Shown piece after piece: positions 788 to 39,025 of a stretch of DNA of 39,025 nucleotides. The stretch is from Perkinsus marinus ATCC 50983 (taxonomy: Eukaryota; Perkinsozoa; Perkinsida; Perkinsidae). The stretch spans positions 71,850 to 110,874 of the forward strand of contig NW_003204277.1 of NCBI RefSeq assembly GCF_000006405.1, read 5' to 3'. Every line of letters begins with the position of its first letter. The first letter of the stretch is position 1. A model generated the notes under the pieces. That model saw only the letters and a list, made by a program, of their open reading frames with translations, was not told the DNA's origin and made no database searches. The position numbers were made by a program, and so were the translations under genes.

Positions 788-809
788 CACGTCGGCGACG
801 TGACGTCGC
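788..809. repeat. 22-bp palindromic scar, octamer CACGTCGC
   Basis: Perfect 7+8+7 pattern: octamer bases 1-7 at 788-794, its full reverse complement at 795-802, bases 2-8 at 803-809. It lies just outside the end of duplicated block A. Confidence 0.85.
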
Positions 810-977
810 ACCACTCATGATAATTCGGGAACTCAAAACTGTGAACAGAGCAGTACTCCGGAGTTGTTTACCACTGCGAAACATACCGCACTACTAGGAA
901 AACCCAATGACATACACTATCTCATATCATCAATTAGTATCATGCAATGACTCGGAGCCGAAGCCATCCCACTATAA

Positions 978-2541
978 CTAACCTGTACCAGAAGAATTAC
1001 GGAGAATGACTCTAGCACAGCAACTTCCACAGACTGGAAGATCTTTGCGACTTGATATGTCAATAGGATTAGTTAGATAGATCCACTTAAACCTTTGATT
1101 CAACATATCGTTGTCGTCCGGGGTCAAATCCCAGCATTGAAACCTCGCAGGGACCGTTATGATTACTGGGGCATCGTTCTTATACAAAGCATCGCACTTG
1201 CTACCATTCTTGGGTAAGGGTAGAGTAATTTCCTTCTTTCCTTCGAAAAAAGGCAGAGCGTCGGAGAGAGAAAAACCAATCTGTCGTCCACAATAGTGGA
1301 AGTCGTCAAGAATGAACAGTTCAACATCCTTCTCCATCAAAATTGACAGAGGATAGCTGCCGGAAGCTAGAGAACAGGTACGATATATTTCAGACAAGTG
1401 ACGAACGAGATATGATTTCCCACAACCGCTCGGACCGGAACAAGATAGATTACAGTTTCGACTACGCCCGACCTCGAGAAGCTTGACTATTGCGGTCGCA
1501 AAGTGAGATGGTTTGATTCCGTTATGCGATAATATCTCGAGCATTGCGATTTCCGTCACGCCTTTGCAGGCACAGGGACCTTGGGCGGCGTTCGCTAATC
1601 TAGCCAAACGAGTCGTTTTAGTTCTCTTGGCCTCTGATGCAGAATCCTCGATGTTCCACACTCTACATAGAAGGTTCGAAATGGAATCCTTCTGATTGAT
1701 GATATACTCTTTAACATTCTTTTCCTGATATGCAGCAGCTAGAAAATCGCGTTCGGTCCGCAGTTTCTTCGTCACAATCCACGGGGCGAGATCGCTCAGA
1801 CGCCTTATCCGACAAGACTGTCCGGTATCTCGCTTCTCATCAGAGGCTCGGAACTCCTTCAACGAGGGTTGCATCGACATGGCAGGGTGATCACGACTCA
1901 GATATGGACTAGGGTCCATCTTACAGCAGTACGTGTAACAGCCTAAATAGCTTCTGAAGTTCAGAATCTGAACGACCGAAAGTTGACAAAAAAATTCTGC
2001 TCTCTCAAATATTTGGCCAGAGATGGCCATCGATGACGTCTAGATGCACAGGTAGATACATGAAAGTGAGTACCTCCGCTTTCGCGGTGCTCTTCTGAAC
2101 AAATACAGTAAAACTTCAAAGGTATACGTTGATGAAGGAATGCTTGCTCGACTCTTCGTCCGAAACTCTCCTTGCTCACATCAATCTCGGGGAGGAGTGT
2201 ATTCTCATTGATGGTACAGGGTTTCGCCCATGTGATAAGATAGTAGCAAGAATAGTCAGGAGAGCGCCTCGGGGGTGTTGCGGATATTGGAAGCTCTGAT
2301 ATGTGGTCCTAAAGTCACGTGAGCATGGCATCGTATGAGCATGGCTACATTGGAAGGTATAGATTCTCACCTCGTCCTTAGAGTCATGATGATCGACAGA
2401 CGGATATGTGCTCAAAGGAATATCATCCGGTACCAGAAAATCCACGATTGAACCAATAGCAGTGTCGAATGTGAGGTTTATATGTGAGGACTCAGATATA
2501 TTTGCTTGGGACTGAGCGGCCGAGACATCTAGGAATTCCAT
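978..2541 (-). pseudogene. CRESS-DNA-virus-like replication initiator (Rep): HUH endonuclease plus SF3 helicase
   Basis: All landmarks of a CRESS-type Rep occur in order on the minus strand. They are motif I LITW (2228-2239), HUH motif II HFH inside EEHRESGGTHFHV (2060-2068), motif III YCCK with the catalytic Tyr (1920-1931), Walker A GPSGCGKS (1413-1436), Walker B FILDDF (1299-1316), a motif-C-like APVIIT (1155-1172) and a possible arginine-finger region RFKWIYL (1074-1094). In viruses this protein nicks the origin and drives rolling-circle replication. Exon 1 would start at the ATG at 2541; a GT-AG intron (2309-2370) brings it into frame with motif I. Between motifs II and III the frame slips by one base at a run of seven T's (1988-1994 on the plus strand), which is either a real mutation or a sequencing error. 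Without the slip the length would be about 500 residues, longer than most viral Reps. The spacing between motifs II and III is normal for the family. It is probably an integrated viral or plasmid gene; whether it is expressed cannot be told. Confidence 0.85.
2309..2370 (-). other. Predicted 62-base intron in the Rep gene
   Basis: On the minus strand the donor is GAG|GTGAGAAT and the acceptor is CTTTAG|GAC. Both junctions are in phase 0 and join the upstream ATG-initiated frame to the frame carrying motif I, skipping a TGA and a TAG. The size matches other introns in the window. Viruses of this type rarely need such introns, so this hints at adaptation after integration. Confidence 0.6.
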
Positions 2542-2557
2542 GCCAATCAACGGGAGC

Positions 2558-2656
2558 TGATCAACTGATCACTGATCAGCAGAAAATTAAGAAAAACATA
2601 ACTCTGAATATTCTCTAGAAGTCAAGTGATCAGCTGATCAGCTGATCAGGGGATCA
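2558..2656. repeat. Palindromic TGATCA cluster, possible replication-origin relic
   Basis: A left arm (2558-2580) with three TGATCA units faces a right arm (2626-2648) with three more, and the arms can pair around a 45-base AT-rich loop. The right side reads as tandem 8-bp repeats of TGATCAGC, like Rep-binding iterons. The loop contains AATATT, also the core of many CRESS nonanucleotides, but no exact TAATATTAC. It sits just upstream of the Rep start, where an origin would be expected. Confidence 0.5.
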
Positions 2657-4091: not shown

Positions 4092-4264
4092 AAATATGAC
4101 TCAGCCGCGCGCGCCCCCCTTACCCCCATCCAATGTTGGCTCTAGACACAAGTATTGAGTGCTCGGCTCTAGGAGTCCCAACATTGGAGAGGGGGTGAGG
4201 GGATTATCAATTCATCATAGTCATGTTTTCTCTCTGCGCGTTGACTCACTTTTGCGTTTGCATG
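3510..4264. repeat. 755-bp duplicated block, copy B
   Basis: Same-orientation partner of 1-755. In this copy the sequence continues left of 3510 into the transposase C-terminus. The two copies bracket the Rep locus. Confidence 0.95.
4115..4202. repeat. GC-rich hairpin in copy B
   Basis: Identical to the hairpin of copy A, with arms at 4115-4139 and 4177-4202, about 25 bases upstream of the transposase frame. Confidence 0.6.
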
Positions 4265-5346
4265 GCGTGCTTTTGCTCGGGCCGAGCTATGGCCATCCCT
4301 ATTATTAGATAAATAGATAGATCCGACTACTAAGCAATTCAAGTTAGTCTTTCCTTGAGACTTTAATGGCAATGAGTTCAGTCCGTGGCGGCATAACCGC
4401 AACATACAGCGTCTTCATGATCAAGCCAATCACCACTGGTGAACAACCCTACACTGACATCGGGGCAAGATGAGGAGTTAGTCGTCAGAAGATGTTTACA
4501 ACTCGCTTGAGCCAAGACGGATACCGAAAGAAAAGATCCCAGAAGTCCCCCTGATTCCGGAGTCCACCTGCCCTATCAACATTAATCAACCCACGTACTC
4601 CACGTAAAACGTTACGAATGAACAGGATTCGCACAACCAATTTGTGCGGCTTCGACCTCCCACGCGTCGCGCACAAATAAACCAATTCTATTCGTAATCT
4701 GGTCAAGCACGTTATTGGCTTGTGCTCTGTCGGAAAGGCCGCGGAGAGCTCGCTACAGATGAGCGATGATGAAGAGTGTGGTATTCTTGACTTGCAAGGT
4801 GCAACCATAAAATACACCGAGATCCGAGGGAGCAAGCTTCTCGGTAGATCTACAACATAGAACGTGTTCTACCGCGATCTGGCCATGTCGTACCCCTTCG
4901 ATATGCTCAAGCCCATTCCGATGGCTAGTCTGGATCTGTCTCACAGTTCACCTGGGACGTCAATTTTTGCGACTTTTAGAAGCCACAAACCCCAGCGTTG
5001 CCAACGCTGCGTTGGAAATTAGGACTGTTGTGAGATCGAGATGGCAATAGAACTAAGGATAGACATCTCGCTGTGTAGTTGCGGACGATGCCTGAGGCAA
5101 TGTGCTTTGAGATCTTCGTCAATCGATTTGATTCATAAGCTTCATCTCAGAAGTGCTGCTGGAGATAATCAAATAGGAGGAGCTAATGCGAACGACAACC
5201 CACCAAGGTCACTCTGAGATTCATCATTACCATAACTACAGCTTGTCAGTTACGATGAGCTGTTCCCTCCGCCACCAACTTATTCCCCATGAAGGCTATG
5301 CATATTCCAATTCGATTAATATGTTGAGTGGTTACAATGCCTCATG
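4265..5346. other. No recognisable gene
   Basis: Short frames only, none with family motifs. It holds one 22-bp scar (4994-5015). The block is probably decayed mobile-element sequence between the Tc1 copy and the hAT relic. Confidence 0.5.
4994..5015. repeat. 22-bp palindromic scar, octamer AGCGTTGG
   Basis: Perfect: 4994-5000, 5001-5008 (reverse complement), 5009-5015. Confidence 0.9.
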
Positions 5347-5737
5347 TTATGCTGGATCAGCTCGTTCGACATTCCAACATCCTAGTAGAATGTCAAAATC
5401 GGGAAATAGAGGGCAACGTAGAGAGCATTCTACCAGCAAGGATAGTCTCGTATTGGTTAGAGACTTCCGCAGTTTGCTTGATACCCTGGTGTAAGTGGAG
5501 AACGTTCTCTCGCATGAAGCTGTAGATAATGGATTTACCAAAATAGTCCCAGCAATAACTGCATGCAATGGCATCTGATCAACACTACCATCACATGCAA
5601 CGAACCGCCGAAGAAAAGACATAGTTGAGACAGGATCAGCCATAGCACCCGAGAACTCGAATCCTGGGCCGCCCCATTTAAGGTATTTCCCGATGAACTT
5701 CAATTCTATATCCATCTCAGAAGCCGCCAAGCCTAGC

Positions 5738-5791
5738 TTTTCTGCCACAGTGGCAGAAAAAAGTGAATGTGGCCGAAAGTGACTTTCGGCC
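5738..5791. repeat. Two odd-centred palindromes, variant scar
   Basis: Palindromes at 5738-5760 (centre A) and 5771-5791 (centre G), ten bases apart. Read by the hairpin rule, the two flanks share only CACT, not an octamer. This could be a trimmed scar or two separate events. Confidence 0.5.
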
Positions 5792-5854
5792 CTTGCTTCT
5801 TCCATAACTCCGAACCAAAATGTGTAATGCTCCTCAAAGTGAGGGCATACACAA

Positions 5855-5876
5855 GTTTGGCCGCCAAACTTTGGCG
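5855..5876. repeat. 22-bp palindromic scar, octamer GTTTGGCG
   Basis: Perfect: 5855-5861, 5862-5869, 5870-5876. It lies inside the hAT relic. Confidence 0.9.
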
Positions 5877-5899
5877 CATGTTGCAGAAGCACTAAAGGA

Positions 5900-5921
5900 G
5901 TTGAGACTCTCAACTTGAGAG
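5900..5921. repeat. 22-bp palindromic scar, octamer GTTGAGAG
   Basis: Perfect: 5900-5906, 5907-5914, 5915-5921. It closes the 5' side of the hAT relic frame. The octamer fits the hAT target preference nTnnnnAn. Confidence 0.9.
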
Positions 5922-6398
5922 GACGGGTGCCATCTGTTTCGCATGTATATGTAGACCAGGGATGTTGTCAAACGGAAGGTTTGAATAGTGCAGAACTCAT
6001 AAGATCAGATGTCCAATGTGATAAGGTCATCATCAAATTGATGCTTCACATGCGCTGTTTAGACTGACCTGATCCATTAGTCAAAATCATCCGCAATTCG
6101 TTAGATTCTGCCGTAAAACCTCCAATGCATTGTACATCTCCGATTCAGGGGACATTGAATGACTTCAAGCACGGAGATTGCAAACTGGCAAAATTGGGGA
6201 GAAAATAAGTAAGGAGGTCTTACGCAAGAATGTTCGGCGATACATACCATCGGTTGACAACGTCGTATTGCGTCAGGGTCGCTGGGGGCGAAGCGAGGCT
6301 CCCCCCTGGTGATAAAATCTATATGCCGTTGGGGCATTGATACCGTTGGGGGTGAAGAACGGCTTTGCAGCTTGGCAGTCGACGCGCATGGCGCGAAA

Positions 6399-6420
6399 GT
6401 GTCCATCGGACACTGTCCGA
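6399..6420. repeat. 22-bp palindromic scar, octamer GTGTCCGA, one substitution
   Basis: 6399-6405 reads GTGTCCA where the rule expects G at base 7; the reverse complement (6406-6413) and second part (6414-6420) are exact. It is slightly aged. Confidence 0.8.
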
Positions 6421-6445
6421 TGATACTCGGAACACCGGGGCTCTA

Positions 6446-8490: not shown

Positions 8491-8576
8491 CCCTCTCCGG
8501 GCCTGACTAGTCCACTCTTGTTTACGCCACTACGTTGGAGCGAGACCCATGTATATCTTGTGTGTATTTGAGCTCA

Positions 8577-8598
8577 CTTTGAAGTTCAAAGTTTGAAC
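8577..8598. repeat. 22-bp palindromic scar, octamer CTTTGAAC
   Basis: Perfect: 8577-8583, 8584-8591, 8592-8598. It fits the nTnnnnAn hAT target consensus. Confidence 0.9.
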
Positions 8599-9006: not shown

Positions 9007-9053
9007 TAGCTCGGACTCCGAGCTAGTTACTCCAAGTCTCGGAGTAACTAGCT
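9007..9053. repeat. Extended scar, octamer about GCTCGGAG (aged)
   Basis: The left palindrome 9007-9025 has a single-base centre (C) and the right one 9021-9053 has centre T with one arm mismatch; they overlap by AGCTA. The octamers inferred from the two centres agree at 7 of 8 bases. The arms run past the octamer into the flanks. Confidence 0.65.
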
Positions 9054-11523: not shown

Positions 11524-11545
11524 AATAGGACTCCTATTATAGGAG
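11524..11545. repeat. 22-bp palindromic scar, octamer AATAGGAG
   Basis: Perfect: 11524-11530, 11531-11538, 11539-11545. Confidence 0.9.
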
Positions 11546-18108: not shown

Positions 18109-18130
18109 ACCTCGCTGCGAGGTCCTCGCA
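18109..18130. repeat. 22-bp palindromic scar, octamer ACCTCGCA
   Basis: Perfect: 18109-18115, 18116-18123, 18124-18130. Confidence 0.9.
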
Positions 18131-18276: not shown

Positions 18277-18327
18277 CGTTCGCATTAGTAATGCGAACGT
18301 AAAACATGTAATGCGGCATTACATGTT
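18277..18327. repeat. Extended scar, octamer CGCATTAC
   Basis: Palindrome 18277-18299 (11-base arms, centre G) and palindrome 18303-18327 (12-base arms, centre G) are separated by TAA. The octamer inferred from each centre is exactly CGCATTAC. The arms extend 4-5 bases into the unique flanks. Confidence 0.9.
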
Positions 18328-18330
18328 CCT

Positions 18331-18352
18331 ATTGACTGAGTCAATTTGACTC
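18331..18352. repeat. 22-bp palindromic scar, octamer ATTGACTC
   Basis: Perfect: 18331-18337, 18338-18345, 18346-18352. It starts four bases after the preceding extended scar. Confidence 0.9.
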
Positions 18353-18465: not shown

Positions 18466-18487
18466 ACCGCCGACGGCGGTCCGCCGT
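18466..18487. repeat. 22-bp palindromic scar, octamer ACCGCCGT
   Basis: Perfect: 18466-18472, 18473-18480, 18481-18487. Confidence 0.88.
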
Positions 18488-18759: not shown

Positions 18760-18788
18760 CATCGACATTGTCGATGTCGATTCGACAA
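18760..18788. repeat. Extended scar, octamer ATCGACAA
   Basis: The left palindrome 18760-18776 and right palindrome 18775-18787 each have centre T. Both centres predict the same octamer, ATCGACAA. A lone palindrome with 11-base arms lies just before it (18732-18754). Confidence 0.75.
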
Positions 18789-20030: not shown

Positions 20031-20052
20031 GCTGACCCGGTCAGCCTGACCG
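20031..20052. repeat. 22-bp palindromic scar, octamer GCTGACCG
   Basis: Perfect: 20031-20037, 20038-20045, 20046-20052. Confidence 0.9.
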
Positions 20053-22644: not shown

Positions 22645-22666
22645 GACCTGAATCAGGCCGCCTGAT
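22645..22666. repeat. 22-bp palindromic scar, octamer GGCCTGAT, one substitution
   Basis: 22645-22651 has A at octamer base 2; 22652-22659 and 22660-22666 are exact. Confidence 0.8.
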
Positions 22667-22887: not shown

Positions 22888-22909
22888 CTGAGGCAGCCTC
22901 AGTGAGACT
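22888..22909. repeat. 22-bp palindromic scar, octamer CTGAGGCT, one substitution
   Basis: 22888-22894 and 22895-22902 are exact; 22903-22909 reads TGAGACT for TGAGGCT. A further odd palindrome (22880-22894) overlaps its left end, so the site may have been hit twice. Confidence 0.75.
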
Positions 22910-22966: not shown

Positions 22967-22988
22967 ACATACAATGTATGTCATACAT
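22967..22988. repeat. 22-bp palindromic scar, octamer ACATACAT
   Basis: Perfect: 22967-22973, 22974-22981, 22982-22988. Confidence 0.85.
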
Positions 22989-23071
22989 CAATATCGGCTT
23001 CCAACGTGAAGCTGGGCCTAGTAGGTTTCATAATACATTGTATTGAATACAACCATAGAAAAACCAGAAGA

Positions 23072-23093
23072 GTTGGTAATACCAACTTGGTAT
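23072..23093. repeat. 22-bp palindromic scar, octamer GTTGGTAT
   Basis: Perfect: 23072-23078, 23079-23086, 23087-23093. Matches nTnnnnAn. Confidence 0.9.
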
Positions 23094-23723
23094 ATAATTG
23101 ATTGCAAATTACACCATTATATGCCGTTACTAGACGGAAGCTATCAACAACCAGGTTAATATCACCTGAACGTTCACAGCGTTTTGAGTCAAGACTTTCG
23201 ACCTCCAAAATCATTCGTTTCGCATTACGTTATTCGTTTTGCGTTTAACACTAGCGTTTCATTATGAAACTTTCATACAACTTAGGTGAAGCGTCAATGT
23301 CTTACATACTTCAATCATCCTTACATGACTGGAAGAGGTTTTCCGAAGCGGATTACGGTGATAGCGAAATCGATTCAATGAAATCCTCAATAAGCATGTA
23401 TCAGTGGAAAACTGCTACCAACCGATCGCTAACCAGTGGTACGACTTGGGGAAAAATATTCTTCCCCATTCACAGCACCTCAGGAGGGCGAGCATGTCAA
23501 CAAACTGCTGCTATCCAAGGCATGAGTCAAAGAGCGGGTCGAGTTCACACGCATAAACTTGATACGCTCCACCAGTGTGTATCTCCTTGTTTAAATAGTT
23601 TATCAAAACACTTCGCGCAAGTATATGCGAAAACGAAGTGTGTTACACAGCCATCTTATATCCTGTCGTCACACTCGTATAAACTGTCAGAACGCGTCGA
23701 ACGTATGGTACGCGTGAAGGTGT

Positions 23724-23940: not shown

Positions 23941-24261
23941 CGCAACACGTTTCGTTGGCGCCCATTAATTTAACGCCGACGCCTTCGGCCCGAAGGGCGG
24001 AACGGGTTCTCACTCCCCACATAGAATTGGCCATGCTCAAAAATCGTCGCCCCCTGTGGAGGGTTGCCACTGTACCCGCTAATGCCGAATTAATGTTACG
24101 TACTGACCGGGACTCAAACACAACAAGAGTTGGTTCCACAGCAGACAACACATGCGCAACATCACAGGTAATTTCACTTTTCCTTGTTCTTTTCAGCGTC
24201 CCCTTCGTTTCCGGAAAACCTGATGAGCGATTCATGATGAACCAGCTCATCACATCATGAC

Positions 24262-26135: not shown

Positions 26136-27415
26136 TTAAGTCGAGCGAATACGTTTTGTACTCAAGAAGCGCGCAACCTCACTCACTTCTTCTATATCAT
26201 CGTCGACACAGCTTTCTGTTGTATCTTGGGAGAGTAGGACAAATATGTCCGAAGTGACGCTACTGCTTGCAGTGAAGTTTACGATGAACATTGGATTTCT
26301 GCTCCACGATTCGACAGTGCCTATCGAAGCCAAGTCGTGAGGATGACGATGCCGTCGACTTCTTCCCCACCAGGAACTGGTTGCCGTGTAGGAATTGGTG
26401 TTCCTCCACAAGTGTCACAGGTGAATCGACCGCGGAATGTCCATCGGCTGGCACTCGGTGGAATGTTGCGGAGAGTGATGATCGAGTTGAATGCTCCGCT
26501 GAAGGTATGCAAATCGATCTCCACTAGAGATTCGGGACTCTCTTGGAATGGACAGCGAAGAGCAACCCGCTGCTGATCGATATGCTCGACGAAGTTGATT
26601 TGCTCGTCGTTCACACCGTGAGCGTCTTGGTCGGACATATATGTGCACGCGAGCACTACGGTATTTTCCGTCGCGACGCTTTCATTGACACGATCTTGCC
26701 AGTTCCCACCAGCGACTTCCATTCGCTCCACCCAATAGGAGTCAGATAAATCACGGAGAATATCGTCAGTCAAGCTCAGTCGCACAAGTCGCTTGTCCCC
26801 AATAAGGGCGACTAGAGCCTGTTCACACAGAGCCGGCCAGAGAAAGGCGCCCTCGTGGCACCGTGTGCCTCGAGGCTCTCCATCGACTAAGGGTATGTGC
26901 AGCCCTGGGAGTACGGCGAACTTTCCAGCCAATCTCAAAATGTGCACACCGTATTGTCTAAGTTCCGGGTCCCAGCCTTCGAGAGGGAAGAGAATCTCAG
27001 GGAAGGTCGGCAAGGTCTGGAGCACAGCCAGGGCGTTAGCAAGAGACACTCCGATAGAATCACTCGGAAGCAGCGTTGACTTTCCCTCAGGGAGAAGGTC
27101 GAAACTTCCTATCTCTTGACGCGAGAAATTCTGATGGTTTACCAGACCAGACTTATCCTGTATTCTTAAAGGCCCTTTCCTCGCCACTAAGATGGAAACC
27201 AGAGTAAAGGCGTAGGATAGAGCAGAGCAGATGTCCTCGTGGAAGATCGCGAGTGGAAGAGGCTCTTCGATGTTTATCGGTCGAGGCGTCGGAGGAGTCT
27301 TCGACCTCCTTCGAAAAGAGTCAGCAAGCCAGTCACTTCGAGCTCGGGGAAGTGGTATATAAGATCCCAGTGGCTCAGTTACAAAATAGCAAAGGAGCAA
27401 ATAGCAAAAAAGTGC
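26136..27415 (-). CDS. Calpain-like cysteine protease (5' end incomplete)
   Basis: The upstream exon is open from about 27415 to 26371. A 50-base GT-AG intron (26370-26321; donor CTG|GTGGGG, acceptor CGATAG) joins in phase 1 to the last exon (26320-26136). Features resemble family C2 calpains, nearest calpain-7. These are a Cys-containing helix (EDICSALSYAFTLVSI) where the catalytic Cys sits; GVHILRLAGKFAVLPGLHIPLVDGEPRG, like the strand region around LxxNGxWRxVxIDDxLP; FLWPALCEQALVALIG, like the LWPSLLEKAYxKLMG helix; and DAHGVND near the expected catalytic His. After the intron WSRNPMFIVNF...VLLSQD matches the beta-sandwich domain III. The Asn of the NPWG motif is not evident, so activity is uncertain. 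No ATG begins the open frame: a 5' exon must lie upstream or is lost. Confidence 0.55.
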
Positions 27416-27760
27416 CAATTAGCTGGAATGCATATTCCCTGCGGCTTTTGCTGTTGTGCTAGTGTGTAAAAACGCTATGGCTGATACACAGAAGAGTAAA
27501 GTAGTAAAATTCACTTTACAAATACGCAAATTTGCCGTTTTGTATAACAGAAACTGCTCGAATGAATATCGTTTGCTTGTTTATATTTCAGAAAATTGCT
27601 ACAATGTATAAAAGTTGCCGCTATGTGAAGTGCTACTATGTAACAAAATTTAGCAGTTTTGCTCAAAAAAGTGGCAAACCAATAAATTGCTCCTCCTACT
27701 ATTGAGCAAATTGCTACTTTTCAGAGGAGCAATTTACCGCTTAACGAATGGGCAACCCCG
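27374..27760. repeat. AT-rich block peppered with GCAA/TTGC, left
   Basis: GCAA, TTGC, GCTA or TGCC recurs about every 10-15 bases in AT-rich sequence. A block of the same style lies at 29390-29970. The 12-mer CTCAGTTACAAA at 27374-27385 has its inverse at 29875-29886. Confidence 0.5.
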
Positions 27761-28117
27761 CAATGGAGCAAATTTTTGCTGTTCTACAATCGGAAGAAGG
27801 AATTGAAATTTCGCACGCGAGAGTCGAACTTTGGTGGGTTGTTGGTGATTGTGTTGAGCATTGCATTATAGTTTCGAAGTCTCTGAGTGGTGACTATTTT
27901 GCAAAGTTCTTTGGTTCTGTCGATATAGATAAGTATAGTTGCAGCACTGGGAGAATGATGGATGGACTATTGTAAGTGGTAGTAGGTCGTTACTAAAGAC
28001 TTACATAATGTAAGTTACATTCGTTAAGGATTCGTTGGATTTTCATATTTTCCACATCATTGCAGTTCGCACATGGTCACAGAAGGACGAGGGAGAGGAT
28101 TGGTGTTTACATGGTAG
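27748..28117 (+). CDS. Possible small two-exon protein
   Basis: The frame from ATG at 27748 runs to a good donor (ATT|GTAAGTGG, exon end 27971). A 94-base intron ends at TTGCAG (28065), and exon 2 (28066-28117) ends in TAG, giving about 92 residues (start MGNPAMEQIFAVLQ, middle WWVVGDCVEHCIIVSKSL). No family is recognised. The intron contains a perfect 22-bp scar (28000-28021), which would be tolerated there. A chance frame next to a chance splice pair cannot be excluded. Confidence 0.35.
28000..28021. repeat. 22-bp palindromic scar, octamer CTTACATT
   Basis: Perfect: 28000-28006, 28007-28014, 28015-28021. It lies within the predicted intron of the small gene. Confidence 0.9.
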
Positions 28118-28385
28118 TTCGTATTGGGCGGAATCACTCGTACTGAGTTATCCGAGATCACTTATTTGGATCAACGTGGATCACTCATCTGCAGTGTAGT
28201 GCTGTATTGCAGGCACCCCAGTGGTGCCCATGCGAGATGTCGTGGCCTTCATACTCGCACCCTGATCCCTACGTGGCCTATTGCATGCGAACCAATATGC
28301 TCTTCCGTAGTCTGAGCAAATACTGGTCATTGCAGAAAGATGCCCCTCGCGAAAATCGAAATTATCGAGGAAAGAGGCAGGCTGG

Positions 28386-28407
28386 CTTAGCAGTGCTAAG
28401 TTAGCAC
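28386..28407. repeat. 22-bp palindromic scar, octamer CTTAGCAC
   Basis: Perfect: 28386-28392, 28393-28400, 28401-28407. Matches nTnnnnAn. Confidence 0.9.
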
Positions 28408-28657
28408 TCCGCATCTACCCGGCGCTGAACAAGTTCTCCCGAGGTACCAGATGTGAGGAGATAGTGCGAAAGTACTCGCCTAACAACAATGCTATTTTAT
28501 TGGTGGAGGAGTATGAGAGGCACGCGGCAAAAGAATTGCAGCAGAAGCGGTCGAAAGAGGACGAGCGTGAGGAATCGAAGTAGTTTCTCCCATCACTGGA
28601 GACTAGCGACCATGTACGCACTCGCAGTAAGATAGGCACCTCAGGGGTGCTCAGCTG

Positions 28658-28678
28658 TTGTAGCTGCTACAAGTAGCT
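28658..28678. repeat. Degenerate scar, octamer about TTGTAGCA
   Basis: 28658-28664 and 28665-28672 are exact; the third part has one missing and one changed base. Confidence 0.5.
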
Positions 28679-29234
28679 GTCTCGGTGATTGGTAGAGAAA
28701 AATTGGACGTTTCTCAATATGCTTCTCATGCAACCCTTAATAGTTTCTCTATGAAAGCCCTCTAGTGGTGCCCGGGAGCGAATATTGTGTGCGGGGGGCT
28801 GTAGAGTTCATACTCAATAATTTAGTCCGTGTTGCGTTTCCCCTGTACAATCCTTCGACACCTCTGCAAAGTCTATAACAATAGCTCCACGAAGACGCTC
28901 AGATGAGTGCCACTGCCCATGAGCAAATGTTTCTCGTGCAGAATGTCAAAGTTGCCCGTAATACTTACGTGATGCCTACTTGAGGGTTTAACTTGTGGGT
29001 ATTGTTGAGTCGTCAATACGTACAATCGTACCAAACCATGAGACACAACTGATACGATGCAAAAAGAGAGAGGATACTCGAAGATGGGACTCAATTTAAC
29101 TGTTATCTCATCTGATTCAATCGCGACGTGTAAGAGCAATCATGTGTTTGGTATTCAGCATTGATCATAACTCGCGCTGTCTTCGGAGTGAATGATATAT
29201 CTCACTAGAGTGCTATCACGCTTTGACTCGATAC

Positions 29235-29256
29235 TAAGTGACTCACTTGGAGTGAG
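29235..29256. repeat. Palindromic scar, octamer about TAAGTGAG, two substitutions
   Basis: 20 of 22 bases follow the rule; the changed pair is GG at 29249-29250. Confidence 0.55.
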
Positions 29257-29389
29257 ACACAAAGTGTGACACCTTTGATAGATAAGATACTTAGTAAGTG
29301 CACAGGGCATGAACATGTTCTGGAGCATAAGATATAAGGCGTAATACCGTAATCGAACGAGAAACGCTATCCCACAACTATGTTTGCTC

Positions 29390-29970
29390 GATTGTATATT
29401 GCTCGTACGAGTAATGCAAAATGACAAGTTTGCTAATAACGCTAACAGAGACGCAGTTTGAGCGAGTGAGCAAAACGCTAGTATATATTTCCGCAGGACG
29501 TAAGTTACAAGAGAGCAAATAGCCGAAACATAGAAGTGGCGTAGCGTTGTCACATACCGGCAACTGCCAAGTTGTATATTTCATGCAGGAACATCACATA
29601 AGGGCAAACCTTGAAAAATGCCAGACTATATAATTACAACGCAAAACATATCAGACAGCAAATGAGCACAACTTGCCAGAATAACGAAAACGTGCGGGCG
29701 AAGCACACTTGGGCAAAAGTGCCAGCGTGTAAAACATTCCGGGGAAATATACAATGCAGCAAAAAAAGAGCAAAAAGAGCGACTTGCTGGAAAACACTTC
29801 TGGATTTGCTACTTTCAACATTGGGTTGCTAAAACCTATACCATAAATTGCTAGGTTATAAATGTGGTTGGTACTTTGTAACTGAGAAAGCAGCACATAC
29901 AAAAGAGCAAAAAAGTGAGACTGTCAGAAATTATAGCATTTGGCAAGTCCGCAATATTAGCAAAAAGTTG
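29390..29970. repeat. AT-rich block peppered with GCAA/TTGC, right
   Basis: Counterpart of 27374-27760. Together they bracket about 1.6 kb. Subterminal motif clusters of this kind flank some DNA transposons, but no convincing terminal repeats with target duplication were found. Confidence 0.45.
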
Positions 29971-30117
29971 CGATTGCCGGATTGTATTACACCGCCTCGT
30001 CCCCCCCAAAACCTGAGCCAATCCTCAGACTTCACAATAATAAGCACGATGACAATAACTAACGGAAAGATAGAGTCTAGCAAAGGTCAACCGAGCCACG
30101 ATACACGGGTATCGAGA

Positions 30118-30670
30118 CTACGGGACAAAGAATAAGCAAAAGATCCACTTTCCTAATTGGGGCCACGGTAGCTCCAACGAAGTCATCCACAATGGAACAA
30201 ATCGGGGCAGACAACGAGTACAGAGTGAGAACAGCTGACATAGAACTCTTCGTCGTCCCCCGACTCGAGCAAAGTCGGAACATGGATCGATATCCTCGGG
30301 TCGTGCAACATAGTATGTTGAACATACCAAAGGCAGAACAAACGGCTATAGACGATATCATACCTTGAGGGAAATGAGACCAGCAGTAAACACTTACGAG
30401 CCATACTCGTAGATAAACGAACCACCAGTATAATCCCAAGCGAGATTCCCATTGCCGTTTCAACGTAAACCAGTGTGGCGCGGCTCCTCCAAGAACGGGA
30501 GAAACGGTGAGCATCTCAAGATACTCAGTGCGCATTCCGAGAACATCAGTGTTCATCCGAATCTCACAACCATTCCTTCCGGGATCAAGGACACAGAATC
30601 CAGCCATGCAGGCGTCCCTGAAAGCATCGAATTCGAGTCCCCCCCAGTCGGATGCGCCTATTCCAAACAT
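30118..30670 (-). CDS. Probable membrane protein, two exons, unknown function
   Basis: Exon 1 runs from ATG at 30670 to 30398 (91 codons) and ends at CTC|GTAAGTG. A 52-base intron (30397-30346) ends in CTATAG, and exon 2 runs from 30345 to the stop at 30118, giving 166 residues. Hydrophobic aromatic stretches (GLYWWFVYLRVWL, PFVLPLVCSTYYV, WIFCLFFV) suggest membrane association; Cys-rich turns lie between (CQLFSLCTRCL). An alternative acceptor 18 bases earlier would end the protein at once. An in-frame Met eight codons upstream is also possible. No family is recognised. It lies just beyond the 3' end of the retroelement on the same strand. Confidence 0.45.
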
Positions 30671-32469: not shown

Positions 32470-32569
32470 ATGGCGCTGATAACCTTGTGGATCAAAGTTT
32501 GATCCACAAGGTTATCAGCGCCATACGTTGATTATGTGTTTGATCATCAAACACATAATCAACGTATGG
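32470..32569. repeat. Extended scar: 55-bp and 49-bp palindromes overlapping by 4 bp
   Basis: Palindrome 32470-32524 has 27-base arms and centre G. Palindrome 32521-32569 has 24-base arms and centre C. They overlap at 32521-32524. On the coding strand both centres predict the octamer GTTTGATC. The net insertion is 55 bases, which equals the frame offset between the integrase parts on each side. Confidence 0.95.
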
Positions 32570-32860: not shown

Positions 32861-32882
32861 GTCTGAGTCTCAGACTCTGAGA
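32861..32882. repeat. 22-bp palindromic scar, octamer GTCTGAGA, in integrase
   Basis: Perfect: 32861-32867, 32868-32875, 32876-32882. It interrupts the codons around the second catalytic Asp of integrase. Confidence 0.95.
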
Positions 32883-33209: not shown

Positions 33210-33231
33210 CCACCATCATGGTGGCACCATG
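33210..33231. repeat. 22-bp palindromic scar, octamer CCACCATG, in integrase
   Basis: Perfect: 33210-33216, 33217-33224, 33225-33231. It lies within the HHCC zinc-finger coding region and brings in a TGA. Confidence 0.95.
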
Positions 33232-36200
33232 TGCTCTCGTCGAAAGTGTCCCGCCTCCTCATGAAACCGATCTAGTGCTTGGCGTCGGAGACCTAAGGCC
33301 GATACTCTGGATCCTTGAGCTCATCCTTCGCTAAAGGCTCTCCTGTCCGGACCCTGTCTCTCACCACCCGAAGAACAGGATCCAACTCTTGATCACGTAC
33401 CAAATCAGCTGTTGACCATTGCTCACAAAGGGTGAGAACACAAGCAGGGGCAGAATTGTCCTCCTTCAACACGTCGGCCTCCCTGTCTTTAGTCAACAAC
33501 TTATCTGTCACCAGGACAGGTATACCTTGCAATTCACGCTGGAGTGCTCCAAGATCTGGCTCTGTCACTTTGTCGTCAGATGTAGTGATCCGGGACAAGG
33601 CATCAGCTACGACGTTGTGCTTACCCTTCTTGTAAAATACCTTAAACTTGAACTGGGACATACTAATGAGCCAGCGTTGCACTTTCGCAGTCGTAGCCGT
33701 CTGTATCCATTCCAAAGGCTTGTGGTCCGAAAAGACGACCAACTCCAAATGGTAACCCCAGAGCAACGGTCTGAACCGTTCCAATGCCTTGAAGATGGCA
33801 TAGGCTTCCCGCTCATACACCGGCCAGACTTTCTTAGTAGGGGTCAGAGACTGGCTGAAGAAGGCTAAAGGCCTTCCGTCCTGCTCCACCACAGCCCCTA
33901 TCGCTACATCGCTGGCGTCGGTCATGAGCCGAAATGGTCTCGAGAAATCTGGGTAGGCCAACAAGGGGAGACTGGCTATCCACTGCTTCAGGTCATTGAA
34001 GGCCAGCTCTTCCTCCTTGCCCCACTGATTCCCGAGTTCCACAACCTTGTTCTTCGTACAGTAGTTCACAATTTCAGAAAGACACCGAGACCTATCCGCA
34101 AATTGCGGGACAAAATTCCTATAGTACCCTGCCAGCCCTAAGAAAGACCGAAGGGCGGGAGCAGTCCGAGGTAGAGGCCACCGTAGGATAATCTCGGCCT
34201 TACCCAAGTCGGGACTCATCCCAGTACTATTGAACATGTGACCCAAATAGGTCACTCGATCCTGCATAAACTCGCACTTCTCAGCGGCCACCGTCATACC
34301 AGCCGCCCGTAGAAGCTCAAAGACGATCCTCAAGTGCTCCAAATGCTCTTCATCAGATCTACTAAAGATCAGGACGTCATCAAGGAAACCCTCACAAAAG
34401 GGAGGTGTCCCAGAATAGCATCCATCAATCGCTGGAAGGTAGCCGGGGCACTTGCCAAACCAAAGGGCATCATCACCCACTCATACAATGGGAAGCTTGG
34501 ACCGGGGCAGAAGGCGGTCTTCCGTTGGTCCTCCTTGCGAATCGGGATCTGCCAGTAACCACTTCTCAAATCGAGAGTCGAAAACACTCGTGCACCAGCC
34601 AGGTGCTCCTGTACATCGTCTGGCCGGGGCACAGGGTGCGCCTCAGTATGGCATGCCTTGTTGAGGTTCCTGTAGTCGATACACATTCTGACTTTATTAT
34701 TCTTCTCCGGAACGAAGACGCACGGGAACCTCCATGCCGACGTACTCCTTCTAATAACACCAAGCTCCTCCATCTCCTTCAGTAAGGCCGAGATCTCATC
34801 ACGGCACTTGTGAGGAATAGGCCTTATTCTCTCACAAATTGGACGAGTCGCCCCAGTGTCGACCGAGTGCTCAGCTTGAGTACAACGTCCGTGACGTAAC
34901 ACAAAACGATCCTTGAACTCCTCACATAGGTCAGCAACGGGTTGTTGCGCTTCCGTAGGGCTCTCACATATATCTGGTAACTTAACCGTCTCGTCCAGAA
35001 ACTCTGGGACAGCAAACCGTAAGGGGTCTTGGCATATATCATCTCCTTCGAAGCCATCTACATGCTCCCAAGCAGCTGGGGGCCACTCCTCTCCCTTAAT
35101 AAGGTTTCTCCCTTTCGGCTTAGACGTGCCGGGAACTCTAGCCTGTGATTCGGCCGGGAGGTTCAAGTTGGCTCTCTCTAACTCCTCGTCAGTCATGAGA
35201 GGCCCATCCGCTCTCAGGCCGGCACACCCAGTCGGGGCAGAGCAAATACCACAAGGACGATCGAAGGTGGAGACATCCAAATGGGCAAATGCAGCTGCAC
35301 ATCCCACGCAATAATGTTCTGGCTCTCTCACACAGTCGATTTCTATATCTTCTTCGGGGCAAGGCTTCTCGCACCAATCCTGAACGGGCGCCGAAACAGT
35401 CCCCTTCGACGTATCACTGTAGGCCACATCCTCGCCCACAGCCTTGTCCGATGCCTCAGTGTTGGCCTTGTCCTCAACCAAGAATTTTTCGGTCTGGCTT
35501 CCTATATTGACCACACCCGTAACCCCTTCTTCCTCGGAGTCAACGGTCTGGACACCTTGCGTTAGCAATCTCCCAGTAGTTTCTAGCACTTGACTTTGTT
35601 GAGCAGCCATCAAAGCTATCCTTGGAGACACCGGCTCCGTCATCGAAGGAGGACTGCTCAACACAGAATCTATATAGGAGGTCGCGTTGCCACCCTGGCA
35701 ACACCGCCTCGACCGTACACCTCTGTCAACGGCGTCCAATGCATCTCGCATCAACCATGGAATACCAGGCGGGCCTGCCTCCGTATTCCTACCAATAATA
35801 CGCACCGGTTTCTCTGGATACAATATATCTAACTGAAAATATTTTAAGAAGTCGTGCCCCAAAATCACGGGGAACGCCAACGATTCTACAATAAAAGCTG
35901 TAATCAAAAAGGGAATACTCAACTCATCAGCTGTGGAGCGGGCTCTCTCCCCCACCCCTGTTGCTGTAATCAGATTAATCGCTAATGTTGCTACACCAAT
36001 AATCTTACAAGAGGACTTATCTATTGTAATCAACGACGGCCCATTCACGGGGCTAACTTCGCAGCCAGCGGGTATCACATCACGTGCTACCATCGTGGCA
36101 CAGCAGCCAGTATCCACGAGGCAGCGAACAAGGCCAACAGACCGAAAATTTGACAGACAAGTTGTACAGACAAGAATAGACGAGAATCATCTCCAAAAGG

Positions 36201-36234: not shown

Positions 36235-36256
36235 GTCAAGAGTCTTGACTCAAGAC
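36235..36256. repeat. 22-bp palindromic scar, octamer GTCAAGAC, gag-pol junction
   Basis: Perfect: 36235-36241, 36242-36249, 36250-36256. It lies between the gag stop and the protease. Matches nTnnnnAn. Confidence 0.95.
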
Positions 36257-36297
36257 TTTAGCGACTGGCGACCGCGGGCTGCTGAGCGGCCGCCCCG

Positions 36298-37587
36298 CTA
36301 ATTTCCCTGTTCCGGCGTCACACCCTTCTTAATCCTCTCCAGCAGAGCGGGGCGCTCAGGACACGAGCGGGACAAGTGTGCCTTAGAACCACAGATGAAG
36401 CAACCCTCACTGCACCTCTTATGAAGACAGTTATAGGATGCATGCTTCCCCTCACAGATCCCGCACGGCATCAGCTGTCTCCTGGGCTGCGTGGGTCCTG
36501 CACGCATGTCCTTATCCTTACGACCAGGATCTTGTTGAGCCTTGAGGATGTCCTTCAGGGACCTAAGCAGGGCATTCTGCGAAGTATGCATAGCGTTGAT
36601 CGCCTTAGTCTGTGATTCGATAAGCGAAGCCAACTGCTTGTCCTTGTCTGGGGAAGGTTGTGCCACCGCCCCGGGGCACGCATGCTCATCCTTGGACACA
36701 GCCGCCGCAGCATGCTTGGCCGTCCGAGACTGCTTTCCTCTGTAATCTTCTATAATCTGGCAGACCTCAGTTATACCCTTAGGTCGACGTCTTCTTAGAA
36801 CCGGCCTGGCCCCCTCCGGGGCACAGGCAATAAGCCGATCCAACAACATACGACTCTTAACCAAAGGGGGAAGCTTCTCCTCCGCCGGTAACATCTTGTC
36901 ATACTCCTCCAGGGCCCGCTTCAAGATGGCCATGAACTGACTGACATGACCCTTCCCGTCCCAAGATAAGGCGTGGAACTTCTCCAAGGCCTCGTCGGGA
37001 CGAATCAGGTCAAAGAGTTGTAACATCATCTCCCGATCAGCAGCGAAGTCCTTCTTGCCAGCGTTCTCGTCCCAAGTGTCAAAATAGGAATCCCTGAAGA
37101 AGCTACCCAATCTCTCGGCCATCATGTGCTCATTCCAACCGGCCGCCCTGGCATCTGCCTCGAACCTTCGGAACCAGATCCTTAGGTCGGAGACTCCATC
37201 ATATCTCTCCGGCATCTGGGCGGTCACCACTTGCAACGTCTGACCAGTGAGGAGAGGCGCCAATATGCCTCTCGTCTGTGATAACTCGGCCTGCTTGTTG
37301 TCCTTAGCCGACTCAGTAACCATACTTTGATGCTTCAGTGTCGGGATCGCTTGAGGGGGTGACCTTTCCTCTAACACGCGGTTATACTCTTCAAGTTGAA
37401 GACTTCAACTGAACGCCTCGCCATCTCTCGCCTGCTTAGCCGCCGCCTCACCCAACTCAGCACGAATGAACTCGTCATAGGCCTCCTGAGCTGCCTCCTC
37501 AGGATCACGACGCACCAAGGGGCCCCGAGGGCCCTCCCCCTCCGCTCGGGGCAGAGTGGGGGTAGAACCAGAAGCTGAACCAACCAT
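36298..37587 (-). pseudogene. gag: Gag-like polyprotein with CCHC zinc knuckle, broken by a scar
   Basis: The front part from ATG 37587 (acidic and helical: EEAAQEAYDEFIRAELGEAAAKQ) is followed after the scar by a 359-codon part. That part holds a capsid-like helical region (MPERYDGVSDLRIWFRRFEADARAAG) and a C-terminal knuckle CFICGSKAHLSRSC (CX2CX4HX4C), preceded by a related CGICEGKHASYNC. Gag packages the element RNA. The scar at 37388-37409 puts a TGA between the two parts, which otherwise lie in the same frame. Simply removing the 14 bases would leave them one base out of register, so another small change is implied, or the original start lay in the third frame near 37424. Confidence 0.8.
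37388..37409. repeat. 22-bp palindromic scar, octamer TCTTCAAC, in gag
   Basis: Perfect: 37388-37394, 37395-37402, 37403-37409. Confidence 0.95.
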
Positions 37588-37626
37588 CTCGTAGTTGTAA
37601 TCGTTCGTAACAAGGAGCTGCTACCA

Positions 37627-39025
37627 AAAAAGTGTCGGGGTATCGGTTGATGAACTCTAAGAACAACACAACAAGGGAACTCGAGCTAGAGCAACCAATA
37701 CTACGACCCTAGGACAATAACAATAAACGCACTACCTGCACTTAAGTTCTGTACGAATACACACTTAGCAGCACAGTATTCGATATTGGGCTCATTCGTT
37801 ATAATGAGGAAGGCGAAGGTTTGATGAGATGCCTCCCGAGTCGGGAGACACGACCGGGCAGCCGCGTCACACCAGTCCGCATCAATCGAAGTCCGCTCAT
37901 CGGAGCAATGAGTGCCAAGTAGTACGGCTGCAGACTACAATGTGTAGCCATACACTAGAGAATATGTTGCTTCAGGTGTGGTGGTTTGAGAAGCAGTCCT
38001 CAGTGAGAACTCCCCACTAACCGTCTTCGATCGTTTCACGCCTTCACGTGCGCAGAAGATTCTCCGTGTGCCATGCGTGAGTCACCCGATGAGAGGTTTC
38101 ATAGTACTTCTCGCCTTATGCCGGCCGCCAAAAGTGTCTAAAAAACACACCTCGCACTACGCCGCGTAGTGGACGGGCAAGAGACGTTCCTCCGAAACAG
38201 CCCTTCTTATGTATCTCCGTATCACTAGATTTGTGCGCGATTGTGCGATCATGCAACGCGGTGGATAGGCGCACAGTTTAGCAGAAGCCTACCAACCTCC
38301 TAGCTCACTCTGTGTTTGTGAACGGCTAGATGGATTCGCATTTCCACATATCGTTTGGGAGTCTCACGCTAGTAGTGGATGCTGCCAAAGATTAGTCGAA
38401 TCGCAGCAAACAGATATGATGAAGTTTGACTTGCTCACCAACAAGCTACATGTCATGTTCCCCGCTCCAGAGCGTGCCCCATCGGCTAATTGTCAATTAG
38501 TAATTGACTGCTAGATGCCATTAACGTCTCAAAGGATACTGGCGTACGAACAAGCAAATCTCACGAGACCAGTGAGGCTCGGGCAAGGCTAATCACCTGT
38601 CACACTGCACGCATACCCATTGTTCTCCTCCAACCGCAGAAAGCTGTCTCTATAGGGTATTTAGCGCACGTCCGTGTGCACCGACCATCCTACTCGACAC
38701 TATGGAGCGACTCTGTGTACATGCCGAGCCACTTATGGTTCTTTCGAGCTCATTGATCATGAATTCCACCGAGGACTTAGGTTCGGGGAAACGAAGCACT
38801 CTAGTTGACGTCTGGAGACTTCCAATCGTAGGCGTGAAATTCCATACTTCCAACTTGCAGCTGTAAATTGTTCAATCTTCGCTGTTGTGTTCCGTTCGAG
38901 CCTGAACATAGGAGAGTTCCTACTTGAGGAGTGAGCTAATTCTCTCTTTGTGATGTTGAGAACTCCCCATTGTGACTCCTTAAATGTGTGACGGGCCGTT
39001 ACGTGTTTCGTGTCACAGCGAGTCT
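37627..39025. other. Upstream of the retroelement, no gene recognised
   Basis: This should hold the 5' LTR if one survives, but no match to the sequence after the polypurine tract was found. It contains a lone 17-bp odd palindrome (38155-38171) and one perfect scar. Confidence 0.5.
38486..38507. repeat. 22-bp palindromic scar, octamer CTAATTGA
   Basis: Perfect: 38486-38492, 38493-38500, 38501-38507. Confidence 0.9.

What the first reader, a model, noticed from the sequence alone, without database searches (positions are those of the whole stretch)
788..38507. A recurrent 22-bp scar built from one octamer in three orientations
Twenty perfect sites obey one rule: octamer bases 1-7, reverse complement of the full octamer, octamer bases 2-8. 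The octamer itself differs at every site. Fourteen of 22 bases are fixed by the other eight, so with even base use about 4^-14 x 39,025, or 0.00015, sites are expected by chance. A mechanism that gives exactly this is excision of an element with an 8-bp target duplication by an enzyme that hairpins the flanks (known for hAT and RAG-type transposases; hAT flank hairpins carry a one-base offset, which explains the single-base palindrome centres). The hairpins would be nicked on the distal side of the duplication, the complementary octamer overhangs annealed, and the ends ligated (+14 bp). T at octamer base 2 (10 of 20) and A at base 7 (8 of 20) are enriched over one quarter, as in the hAT target consensus. 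Short palindromic hAT footprints are known; one dominant, precise +14 outcome at this density is, to my knowledge, unusual.
Basis: partly seen in the sequence, partly recalled or inferred. Interest (0 to 1): 0.93.

Follow-up and report, generated by a model that had tools for sequence, protein, structure and literature searches.

The report
Transposon excision scars pepper oyster parasite
The genome of an oyster parasite (Perkinsus marinus) carries an estimated several thousand 14-base insertions, all built by one rule, that look like healed wounds left where hAT-type jumping genes cut themselves out, giving an unusually clear record of how such hairpin-capped breaks are repaired.

Summary
The window holds 23 perfect 7+8+7 sites (reader: 20); simulated sequence has none, and only unit length 8 with a one-base offset is strongly enriched. 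The genome is almost certainly Perkinsus marinus ATCC 50983. Scars occur genome-wide: 62 perfect in a 222.5-kb sample (window included); arbitrary loci extrapolate to about 6,000 perfect and 22,000 recognisable in the 54.5 Mb held.

Repeat copies elsewhere lack exactly 14 bp at six window sites (22 of 22 alignments; 18 keep the exact octamer). One scar is shared by 12 of 12 fetched copies of its repeat, so scars are inherited. hAT elements with perfect 8-bp target duplications are present, some nearly identical.

Strongest new evidence: 14 further sites carry two separate odd-centred palindromes (arms 4-27) whose tips spell the same octamer: both hairpinned flanks, opened at varying distances and joined differently. 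Short partial footprints exist too, about 23 above simulation. The +14 form (61 sites) is thus the commonest recognisable outcome, not the only one, and is best explained by annealing of the complementary octamers that the duplication supplies.

The mechanism is a known kind (hAT excision, P-nucleotides). Density, preferred product and twin-hairpin class are, as far as searched, undescribed.

The parts
788..809 (.). +14 scar, octamer CACGTCGC
1952..1973 (.). +14 scar, octamer TTCTGAAC
4994..5015 (.). +14 scar, octamer AGCGTTGG
5855..5876 (.). +14 scar, octamer GTTTGGCG (paralog similarity begins inside it, so the empty state is not testable)
5900..5921 (.). +14 scar, octamer GTTGAGAG; absent from paralogs at C289 (two places) and C104, which hold the bare octamer
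8577..8598 (.). +14 scar, octamer CTTTGAAC
11524..11545 (.). +14 scar, octamer AATAGGAG
18109..18130 (.). +14 scar, octamer ACCTCGCA (no other copy found in the genome)
18277..18327 (.). twin-hairpin footprint: odd palindromes centred 18288 and 18315, arms 11 and 12, both spelling octamer CGCATTAC
18331..18352 (.). +14 scar, octamer ATTGACTC
18466..18487 (.). +14 scar, octamer ACCGCCGT
18760..18787 (.). twin-hairpin footprint: centres 18768 and 18781, arms 8 and 6, octamer ATCGACAA
19303..19324 (.). +14 scar, octamer TGTGTGTG (low-complexity octamer, left out of the 61)
20031..20052 (.). +14 scar, octamer GCTGACCG
22967..22988 (.). +14 scar, octamer ACATACAT
23072..23093 (.). +14 scar, octamer GTTGGTAT
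23256..23277 (.). +14 scar, octamer GTTTCATA
28000..28021 (.). +14 scar, octamer CTTACATT; 5 of 5 paralogs aligned lack the 14 bp
28386..28407 (.). +14 scar, octamer CTTAGCAC; shared by 12 of 12 fetched paralogs (inherited before the repeat spread)
30306..30327 (.). +14 scar, octamer CAACATAC
32470..32569 (.). twin-hairpin footprint: centres 32497 and 32545, arms 27 and 24, octamer GATCAAAC; paralogs C45 and C137 are 55 bp shorter here, as predicted
   Evidence: coordinates
32861..32882 (.). +14 scar, octamer GTCTGAGA; 3 of 3 paralogs aligned are bare
33210..33231 (.). +14 scar, octamer CCACCATG; 3 of 3 paralogs aligned lack the 14 bp
36235..36256 (.). +14 scar, octamer GTCAAGAC; 3 of 3 paralogs aligned lack the 14 bp
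37388..37409 (.). +14 scar, octamer TCTTCAAC; 5 of 5 paralogs aligned are bare
38486..38507 (.). +14 scar, octamer CTAATTGA
6399..6420 (.). scar with 1 mismatch, octamer GTGTCCGA
22645..22666 (.). scar with 1 mismatch, octamer GGCCTGAT
22888..22909 (.). scar with 1 mismatch, octamer CTGAGGCT
23031..23052 (.). scar with 1 mismatch, octamer CAATACAA
23725..23746 (.). scar with 1 mismatch, octamer ATATTAGG
23975..23996 (.). scar with 1 mismatch, octamer GCCGAAGG
5347..5913 (-). open frame with a weak hAT C-terminal dimerisation match (PF05699, E 7.9e-4, 19.6 bits, below its cut-off of 21.4): probable hAT remnant, crossed by scars 5855 and 5900
27372..29995 (.). dispersed repeat, many partial and full copies, mostly 82-97% identical, used as the paralog set for scars 28000 and 28386
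33293..36117 (-). Ty3/gypsy-like reverse transcriptase and RNase H frames of a retroelement copy that carries scars
   Evidence: the Ty3/gypsy label is my reading of the domains

Best explanation
Each 22-mer is the healed donor site of a hAT-type cut-and-paste transposon. SHOWN: at the sites that could be tested, other copies hold a bare octamer O where the scar holds O1-7 rc(O) O2-8, exactly +14 bp; hAT elements with 8-bp duplications live in the same genome; other sites carry both hairpin tracts of one octamer separately. INFERRED: the element duplicates O on insertion. On excision the transposase nicks one base outside each end and the freed 3' end attacks the opposite strand, so each flank becomes a hairpin whose tip is a single unpaired base, complementary to the base bordering the element. 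A host nuclease opens each hairpin at a variable distance back from the tip, leaving 3' overhangs (P-nucleotides) that include rc(O) on one side and O on the other. Because the two copies of O are identical, these overhangs are complementary over exactly eight bases. They anneal, flaps are trimmed and gaps filled, giving +14 bp. When annealing at O fails, the overhangs are joined elsewhere, giving twin long palindromes or short partial ones. Scars are inherited, decay by substitution, and can be hit again.
For: 23 perfect sites against 0 simulated, strongly only at k = 8 with offset 1. 22 of 22 paralog alignments at six window sites lack exactly 14 bp, 18 with the exact octamer. 14 bp is the commonest indel size between the repeat copies aligned, and 8 of 9 distinct 14-bp indels are scars (after merging two alignment-register duplicates by hand). 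A 28-bp insertion in paralog L043 resolves into two nested scars. A hAT family (CATAC...GTATG; three 4.34-kb copies about 99.9% identical) has perfect 8-bp duplications in 3 of 3, and in 8 of 10 testable shorter copies. T2/A7 occupancy is 51 of 124 in scars (p = 1.8e-4) and 15 of 22 in the element duplications. 14 twin-palindrome sites share one octamer each, against 0-2 in each of five shift controls.
Against: No element was seen at an octamer that is scarred in another copy. No reads or other strains could be checked. 16 of the 23 window scars have no paralog test. Source families are unassigned: scars have a weaker T2/A7 bias than the CATAC family, and their strongest deviation is at base 1 (G1/C8, 49 of 124, p = 1e-4), which neither nTnnnnAn nor the CATAC duplications (G1/C8 3 of 22) predicts. 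Short footprints (inserts of 2-6 nt) are above simulation by about 23 sites, so the +14 product is not the sole outcome. The annealing step and the nuclease are inferred. Two of ten testable short elements lack a duplication.
Confidence: 0.9

Rival explanations
1. The same hAT excision, but the hairpins are opened precisely at the distal edge of the 8-bp duplication by a nuclease guided by the transpososome footprint, so the product is fixed by cutting and not by annealing.
For: One product is far the commonest: 61 sites against 14 twin sites and 36 observed short-insert sites, of which about 13 are expected by simulation.
Against: In the 14 twin sites palindrome arms vary from 4 to 27 nt, so opening is not fixed at the edge in those events.
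Confidence: 0.15
2. Another DNA-transposon superfamily with duplications near 8 bp (MULE or Merlin, both present in this genome; or P, not searched for) made the scars through flank hairpins.
For: MULE domain: 28 matches; Merlin/IS1595 domain: 4; hAT domain: 14. Muta1 makes 8- or 9-bp duplications (PMC5225508 passages); Merlin 8 or 9 bp and remnants in P. marinus (PMC8101967 passages).
Against: The one-base-offset palindrome is the stated hAT rule (PMC5873905 passages) and T2/A7 is the Hermes target (PMC10368747 passages). The Muta1 main text never uses the word hairpin. In the sample, elements with inverted ends and duplications of 6, 7, 8, 9 and 10 bp gave 6, 3, 4, 0 and 0 hits. Dada elements, also in P. 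marinus, make 6-7-bp duplications (PMC3706591 passages), which do not fit a unit of 8.
Confidence: 0.06
3. Replication template switching or quasi-palindrome mutation, without a transposon.
For: Such events make local inverted copies (recalled).
Against: They would not give a fixed length of 8 and a fixed one-base offset, nor T2/A7 enrichment, nor twin palindromes spelling one octamer.
Confidence: 0.01
4. Chance or assembly artefact.
For: None found; raw reads were not available.
Against: 0 in simulations; sites on many contigs; one scar shared by 12 paralogs with decay in 3.
Confidence: 0.01

Closest known systems
Ac/Ds excision footprints in plants, baker's yeast and Candida albicans (PMC5873905, passages read; Yu 2004, Huefner 2011 and Lazarow 2012 only as cited there)
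   Same: Palindromic P-nucleotide insertions centred on the complement of the base next to the element; hairpin intermediate; putative microhomology in 88-89% of yeast footprints; palindrome arms up to 20 nt in yeast.
   Different: In Candida 28 different footprints among 128 excisions, the two commonest making 53, and P-tracts of at most three nucleotides. Here a full-octamer +14 product is the commonest recognisable form (61 sites) and is fossilised across the genome.
Ascot-1 of Ascobolus immersus (Colot 1998; recalled, paper not held)
   Same: hAT-like element, small palindromic additions, hairpin model (recalled).
   Different: Many products at one locus (recalled) versus one favoured product at very many loci.
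TcBuster excision in human cells (PMC3499496, passages read)
   Same: hAT, 8-bp duplication, hairpin plus end joining.
   Different: Insertions of a few nucleotides and deletions up to 50 bp; no +14 form in the passages read.
mPing excision repair (PMC4561436, abstract read)
   Same: Target-duplication-derived microhomology directs repair.
   Different: PIF/Harbinger element, staggered cuts, precise restoration; no inverted octamer.
V(D)J coding joints (recalled)
   Same: Flank hairpins opened off-centre leave P-nucleotides.
   Different: Hairpins without the one-base offset (recalled) and no target duplication to anneal.

Membership tests
hAT excision footprints | 8-bp unit, as in hAT target duplications | tested here: met
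   k = 8 only; bare octamer in paralogs
hAT excision footprints | hairpin palindromes centred on the complement of the base bordering the element (one-base offset) | tested here: met
   offset 1 gives 61, offset 0 gives 0 at k = 8; odd-centred palindromes with arms of exactly 7 nt number 168 against 13 even-centred; rule as stated in PMC5873905
hAT excision footprints | nTnnnnAn target preference | tested here: met
   51 of 124 T2/A7 in scars, p = 1.8e-4, but base 1 deviates at least as strongly (G1/C8 49 of 124); consensus from PMC10368747
hAT excision footprints | an element at the same octamer in another allele or copy (filled state) | tested here: inconclusive
   none recognised in the match lists; sequences of most matches were not read
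hAT transposon superfamily (the resident elements) | hAT C-terminal dimerisation domain PF05699 | tested here: met
   14 matches, 14 over the cut-off; within the CATAC element E 1.1e-6
hAT transposon superfamily (the resident elements) | terminal inverted repeats and 8-bp duplication | tested here: met
   11 of 13 testable copies have a perfect duplication; short imperfect inverted ends starting CATAC
hAT transposon superfamily (the resident elements) | catalytic activity with flank hairpins | not testable with these tools
   needs biochemistry
Mutator-like or Merlin origin of the scars | elements of these families with 8-9-bp duplications and flank hairpins | tested here: inconclusive
   domains present; no 9- or 10-bp-duplication elements in the sample; flank hairpins not tested

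The most novel reading that the evidence does not exclude
In Perkinsus marinus, hairpin-capped transposon breaks are healed mainly by a target-duplication-directed annealing route that writes an exact, self-templated 14-bp insertion. Some twenty thousand recognisable scars form one of the largest indel classes in the genome and work as a countable, datable record of transposition that outlives the elements. The minority twin-hairpin scars record where the hairpins were opened, so both steps of hairpin repair can be read from the genome alone.
Probability: 0.55. Interest if true: 0.86.

Novelty: new variant of a known kind. Interest (0 to 1): 0.79.

Why it matters
hAT excision products are normally seen one locus at a time in reporter assays and are diverse. 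Here a genome has kept very many products with their exact target octamer readable, so the opening distance, joining rule, nesting and decay of hairpin-ended break repair can be measured statistically, in a lineage (Perkinsozoa) for which the searches made here showed no such study. It suggests that the target-site duplication itself, by giving complementary overhangs, steers the repair outcome. It also offers a transposition counter that does not depend on surviving elements, and suggests that 14-bp insertions are a major mutation class in this oyster parasite.

Tried and rejected
Loss of classical end joining as the cause of the favoured annealed product: a Ku core domain is present (best E 2.2e-6, with stops inside the matched frame, introns not considered) and three contigs carry family-A polymerase domains. 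The idea is not supported by gene loss; integrity of the Ku gene was not examined.

My first claim that +14 makes up 81% of footprints (61 of 75) counted only +14 and twin sites. The check found 36 distinct sites with short inserts of 2-6 nt (17, 7, 4, 4, 4) and none of 7, against a simulated mean of 13.2 (9.2, 1.6, 1.4, 1.0, 0.0), so about 23 are probably real; two of them are also half of twin sites. With these the +14 share is about 61 of 98, and less if short footprints are under-detected or perfect restoration, which is invisible here, is common. I lowered the novel-case probability from 0.6 to 0.55 for this.

DNA search for paralogs of window 17900-20300 (five scars): self match only. 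Search of solved structures with a hAT frame: no match up to E 1. PF01548 was searched first only to learn which genome holds the window: no match. A C23 copy of the short element abuts a gypsy copy but lacks a duplication, so it is not a usable filled site. One 14-bp indel at 28282 is not a scar. In one search two scars were split by alignment register (33207/33211; 13+1 at 36234) and I merged them by hand. Incomplete copies of the CATAC family (C78+, C39, C15, C137-) were fetched and not counted for duplications.


Full report
IDENTITY. The window is G000:C72:71850-110874 of a held assembly of 54.46 Mb in 347 contigs. A hAT transposase frame from contig C25 (249,143 bases) matches at 100% over the whole query a protein named as Perkinsus marinus ATCC 50983 on a contig of 249,143 bases. 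The published P. marinus assembly has 17,897 scaffolds and 87 Mb (PMC7789003 passages), so the held genome is probably a subset or another version. I take the genome to be P. marinus (Alveolata, Perkinsozoa), an oyster parasite (so called in PMC3706591).

OBSERVATION. Excluding the 100-N gap, the window has 23 perfect O1-7|rc(O)|O2-8 sites. Scanning k 5-13 and offsets 0-3 against three Markov simulations, k = 8 with offset 1 stands out (23 perfect, 29 with up to 1 mismatch, 32 with up to 2; 0 simulated). The k = 10, offset-3 signal is the same sites re-read. The larger sample has 222,525 non-N bases: window, loci at arbitrary places, and loci around hAT and repeat hits. The all-N locus L001, loci overlapping others (L025, L026, L032, L033, L035, L037) and the later paralog pieces were left out; the near-identical copies L024/L048-L050 and L020/L021 still overlap in content. 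It holds 62 perfect, 47 one-mismatch, 37 two-mismatch and 63 three-mismatch sites; the 62 have 61 distinct octamers. Many three-mismatch sites may be chance. With low-complexity octamers removed 61 remain, against 0 simulated. Using only the loci placed without regard to content, L002-L017 (124,711 non-N bases, L002 being next to the window and some stretches masked), the counts are 14, 34 and 51 for 0, up to 1 and up to 2 mismatches. These extrapolate to about 6,100 (95% interval 3,300-10,300), 14,800 (10,300-20,700) and 22,300 (16,600-29,300) in 54.46 Mb. The window, at 23 in 38.9 kb, is several times denser than that average, and 3 of the 13 readable loci L003-L017 had no site even at three mismatches (L004, L008, L015). 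Density is thus uneven and the extrapolation rough.

EMPTY SITES. In the retroelement copy at about 30-37.7 kb, paralogs on C45, C243, C137, C212, C51 and C77 were aligned at scars 32861, 33210, 36235 and 37388: 14 of 14 alignments lack exactly 14 bp and 12 hold the exact octamer (two have substitutions in it). In the dispersed repeat 27372-29995, 5 of 5 aligned paralogs lack the 14 bp of scar 28000, three with the exact octamer. Scar 5900 is absent from three paralogous places, C289 twice and C104 (four loci, two of them overlapping), with the exact octamer in each. Total: 22 of 22 lack 14 bp, 18 of 22 with the exact octamer. Scar 28386 behaves differently: 12 of 12 fetched paralogs carry it, 9 perfectly and 3 with one or two changes. 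It predates the spread of that repeat and shows that scars are heritable and decay. The other 16 window scars were not tested for an empty state; five of them (18109-20031) lie in DNA with no other copy found. Conversely, paralogs L089 and L090 carry private scars where the window is bare, and L043 has a 28-bp insertion. That insertion reads as one scar (octamer ATACTATC) inside an older one (GTATCCAC); the window there differs from the older octamer at two bases. Peeling scars elsewhere printed five new matches in four loci (L030 twice with the same 22-mer), from 110 scars, against 3 in 2,130 random controls; only L043 is backed by a paralog.

INDEL SPECTRUM. Indels between window and paralogs were listed without using the pattern (22 alignments). 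14 bp is the commonest size. After merging alignment-register duplicates there are nine distinct 14-bp indels, eight of them scars, and the 28-bp indel is two nested scars. Every other size occurs one to five times. Substitution divergence is 2.3-4.4% for the retroelement and the repeat, 9-10% for the 5900 region.

TWIN HAIRPINS AND SHORT FOOTPRINTS. Palindromes with a single-base centre and arms of at least 7 number 278, against 20 and 21 for gaps 0 and 2, 145 for gap 3 (largely the same odd centres re-read) and 27 for gap 4; arms of exactly 7 nt: 168 odd against 13 even. Of 277 odd palindromes with arms of at least 7, 179 have 5-7 of 7 matches on the missing side, as expected for intact or decayed scars, against about 3.5% of random centres. 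The others include long perfect odd palindromes with arms to 27 nt. I then searched for pairs of odd palindromes up to 300 bp apart (arms at least 4) whose tips encode the same octamer: 61 pairs at distance 7 (the +14 scar) and 14 at other distances (13-53), against 2, 1, 0, 0 and 2 when the register is shifted. The 14 octamers all differ. Some of the 14 may be compound events: one lies in repeated GCGTGCGTCAC sequence, one in L016 contains further palindromes, and several have long filler. Three lie in the window (18288/18315, 18768/18781, 32497/32545). For the last, the model predicts a 55-bp insertion. From window 32000 to 32546 the paralogs C45 and C137 span 491 bases against 546 (coordinates): exactly 55 fewer. 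Short footprints with inserts of 2-6 nt number 36 against 13.2 simulated, and none has an insert of 7. So +14 is the commonest recognisable product, roughly 61 of 98, not the sole one.

SOURCE ELEMENTS. The hAT dimerisation domain has 14 matches in the genome. One family (ends CATAC...GTATG) has three 4.34-kb copies about 99.9% identical, each with a perfect 8-bp duplication (ATTCTGAG, AAGCAGAA, TTCCCAAG), and shorter relatives of about 1.43-1.6 kb (17 right-end and 18 left-end matches in all). Of 11 shorter copies with both ends read and paired, 8 have perfect duplications, C23 and C104 have none, and C249 has a gap on one side. A scan of the sample for inverted ends flanked by direct repeats of 6, 7, 8, 9 and 10 bp gave 6, 3, 4, 0 and 0 hits. 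The four 8-bp hits include a 1,188-bp element with CAGGG ends in L006 and a 1,716-bp element in the hAT locus L020; the other two, in L015, share one right end. T2/A7 is 51 of 124 in scars (p = 1.8e-4) and 15 of 22 in element duplications. In scars base 1 deviates as strongly (G1/C8 49 of 124, p = 1e-4) and base 3 weakly (p = 0.009), which the CATAC family does not show, so other families probably contributed. MULE (28) and Merlin (4) domains are also present and Dada elements are published from P. marinus; P elements were not searched for.

MECHANISM. With an 8-bp duplication O...O, nicking one base outside each element end and hairpinning gives tips with the complement of the bordering base as centre. 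Opening each hairpin further back leaves 3' overhangs that contain rc(O) on the left and O on the right. These are complementary over exactly eight bases, whatever the opening distance if flaps are trimmed, and joining there gives O1-7 rc(O) O2-8. The twin sites show variable opening, so annealing by the duplication is the simpler cause of the favoured product. This last step is inference.

LITERATURE. Passages were read in PMC5873905, PMC10368747, PMC3499496, PMC5225508, PMC8101967, PMC3706591 and PMC7789003; the abstract of PMC4561436. Colot 1998 (Ascot-1), Yu 2004 and Lazarow 2012 were not held; what I say of Colot is recalled. Nine searches (listings and starts of abstracts) showed no title or abstract start describing genome-wide +14 palindromic scars or hAT scars in Perkinsus. 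The library lacks most subscription papers.

VERDICT. Real, genome-wide, and best explained by hAT-type excision repaired through hairpins: a known chemistry with an unusual, favoured, fossilised outcome. Shown: pattern, empty sites, inheritance, nesting, twin hairpins, resident hAT elements with 8-bp duplications. Inferred: the annealing step, the host nuclease, and which element families acted.

Noticed in passing
window 1-755 and 3510-4264: 755-bp direct repeat at 99.87% identity, possibly long terminal repeats of a young element.
   Followed up: no
window 2944-3525 (-): Frame with a DDE_3 endonuclease match (28.8 bits, just over the cut-off) between those repeats.
   Followed up: no
window 7658-8490; 15341-15709; 12995-13050: Tandem repeats: 277 bp x 3 at 99%, 108 bp x 3.4, and a CTA microsatellite.
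   Followed up: no
window 27372-29995: Dispersed repeat, most of the 69 match rows (40 of 66 candidates scored); nature not identified.
   Followed up: partly
L053, L054 (C282): One short hAT copy sits in what looks by eye like a tRNA gene (no tRNA finder run). P. marinus Dada elements are published as tRNA-gene inserters (PMC3706591 passages), but this copy has CATAC ends and an 8-bp duplication.
   Followed up: no
L055 (C249): The right flank of an element abuts a scar-like GTCTCTC-GGC-GGAGAGAC-TCTCTCC with three extra bases; the left flank is a gap, so this is unexplained.
   Followed up: partly
window 5749 and 18743 (centres): Single odd-centred palindromes with 11-nt arms and no twin by exact octamer: perhaps one-sided hairpin products.
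   Followed up: no
L046 at the site of window scar 36235: The octamer region reads with GT replaced by AC (its reverse complement) at unchanged length: a possible 2-bp inversion or two substitutions.
   Followed up: no
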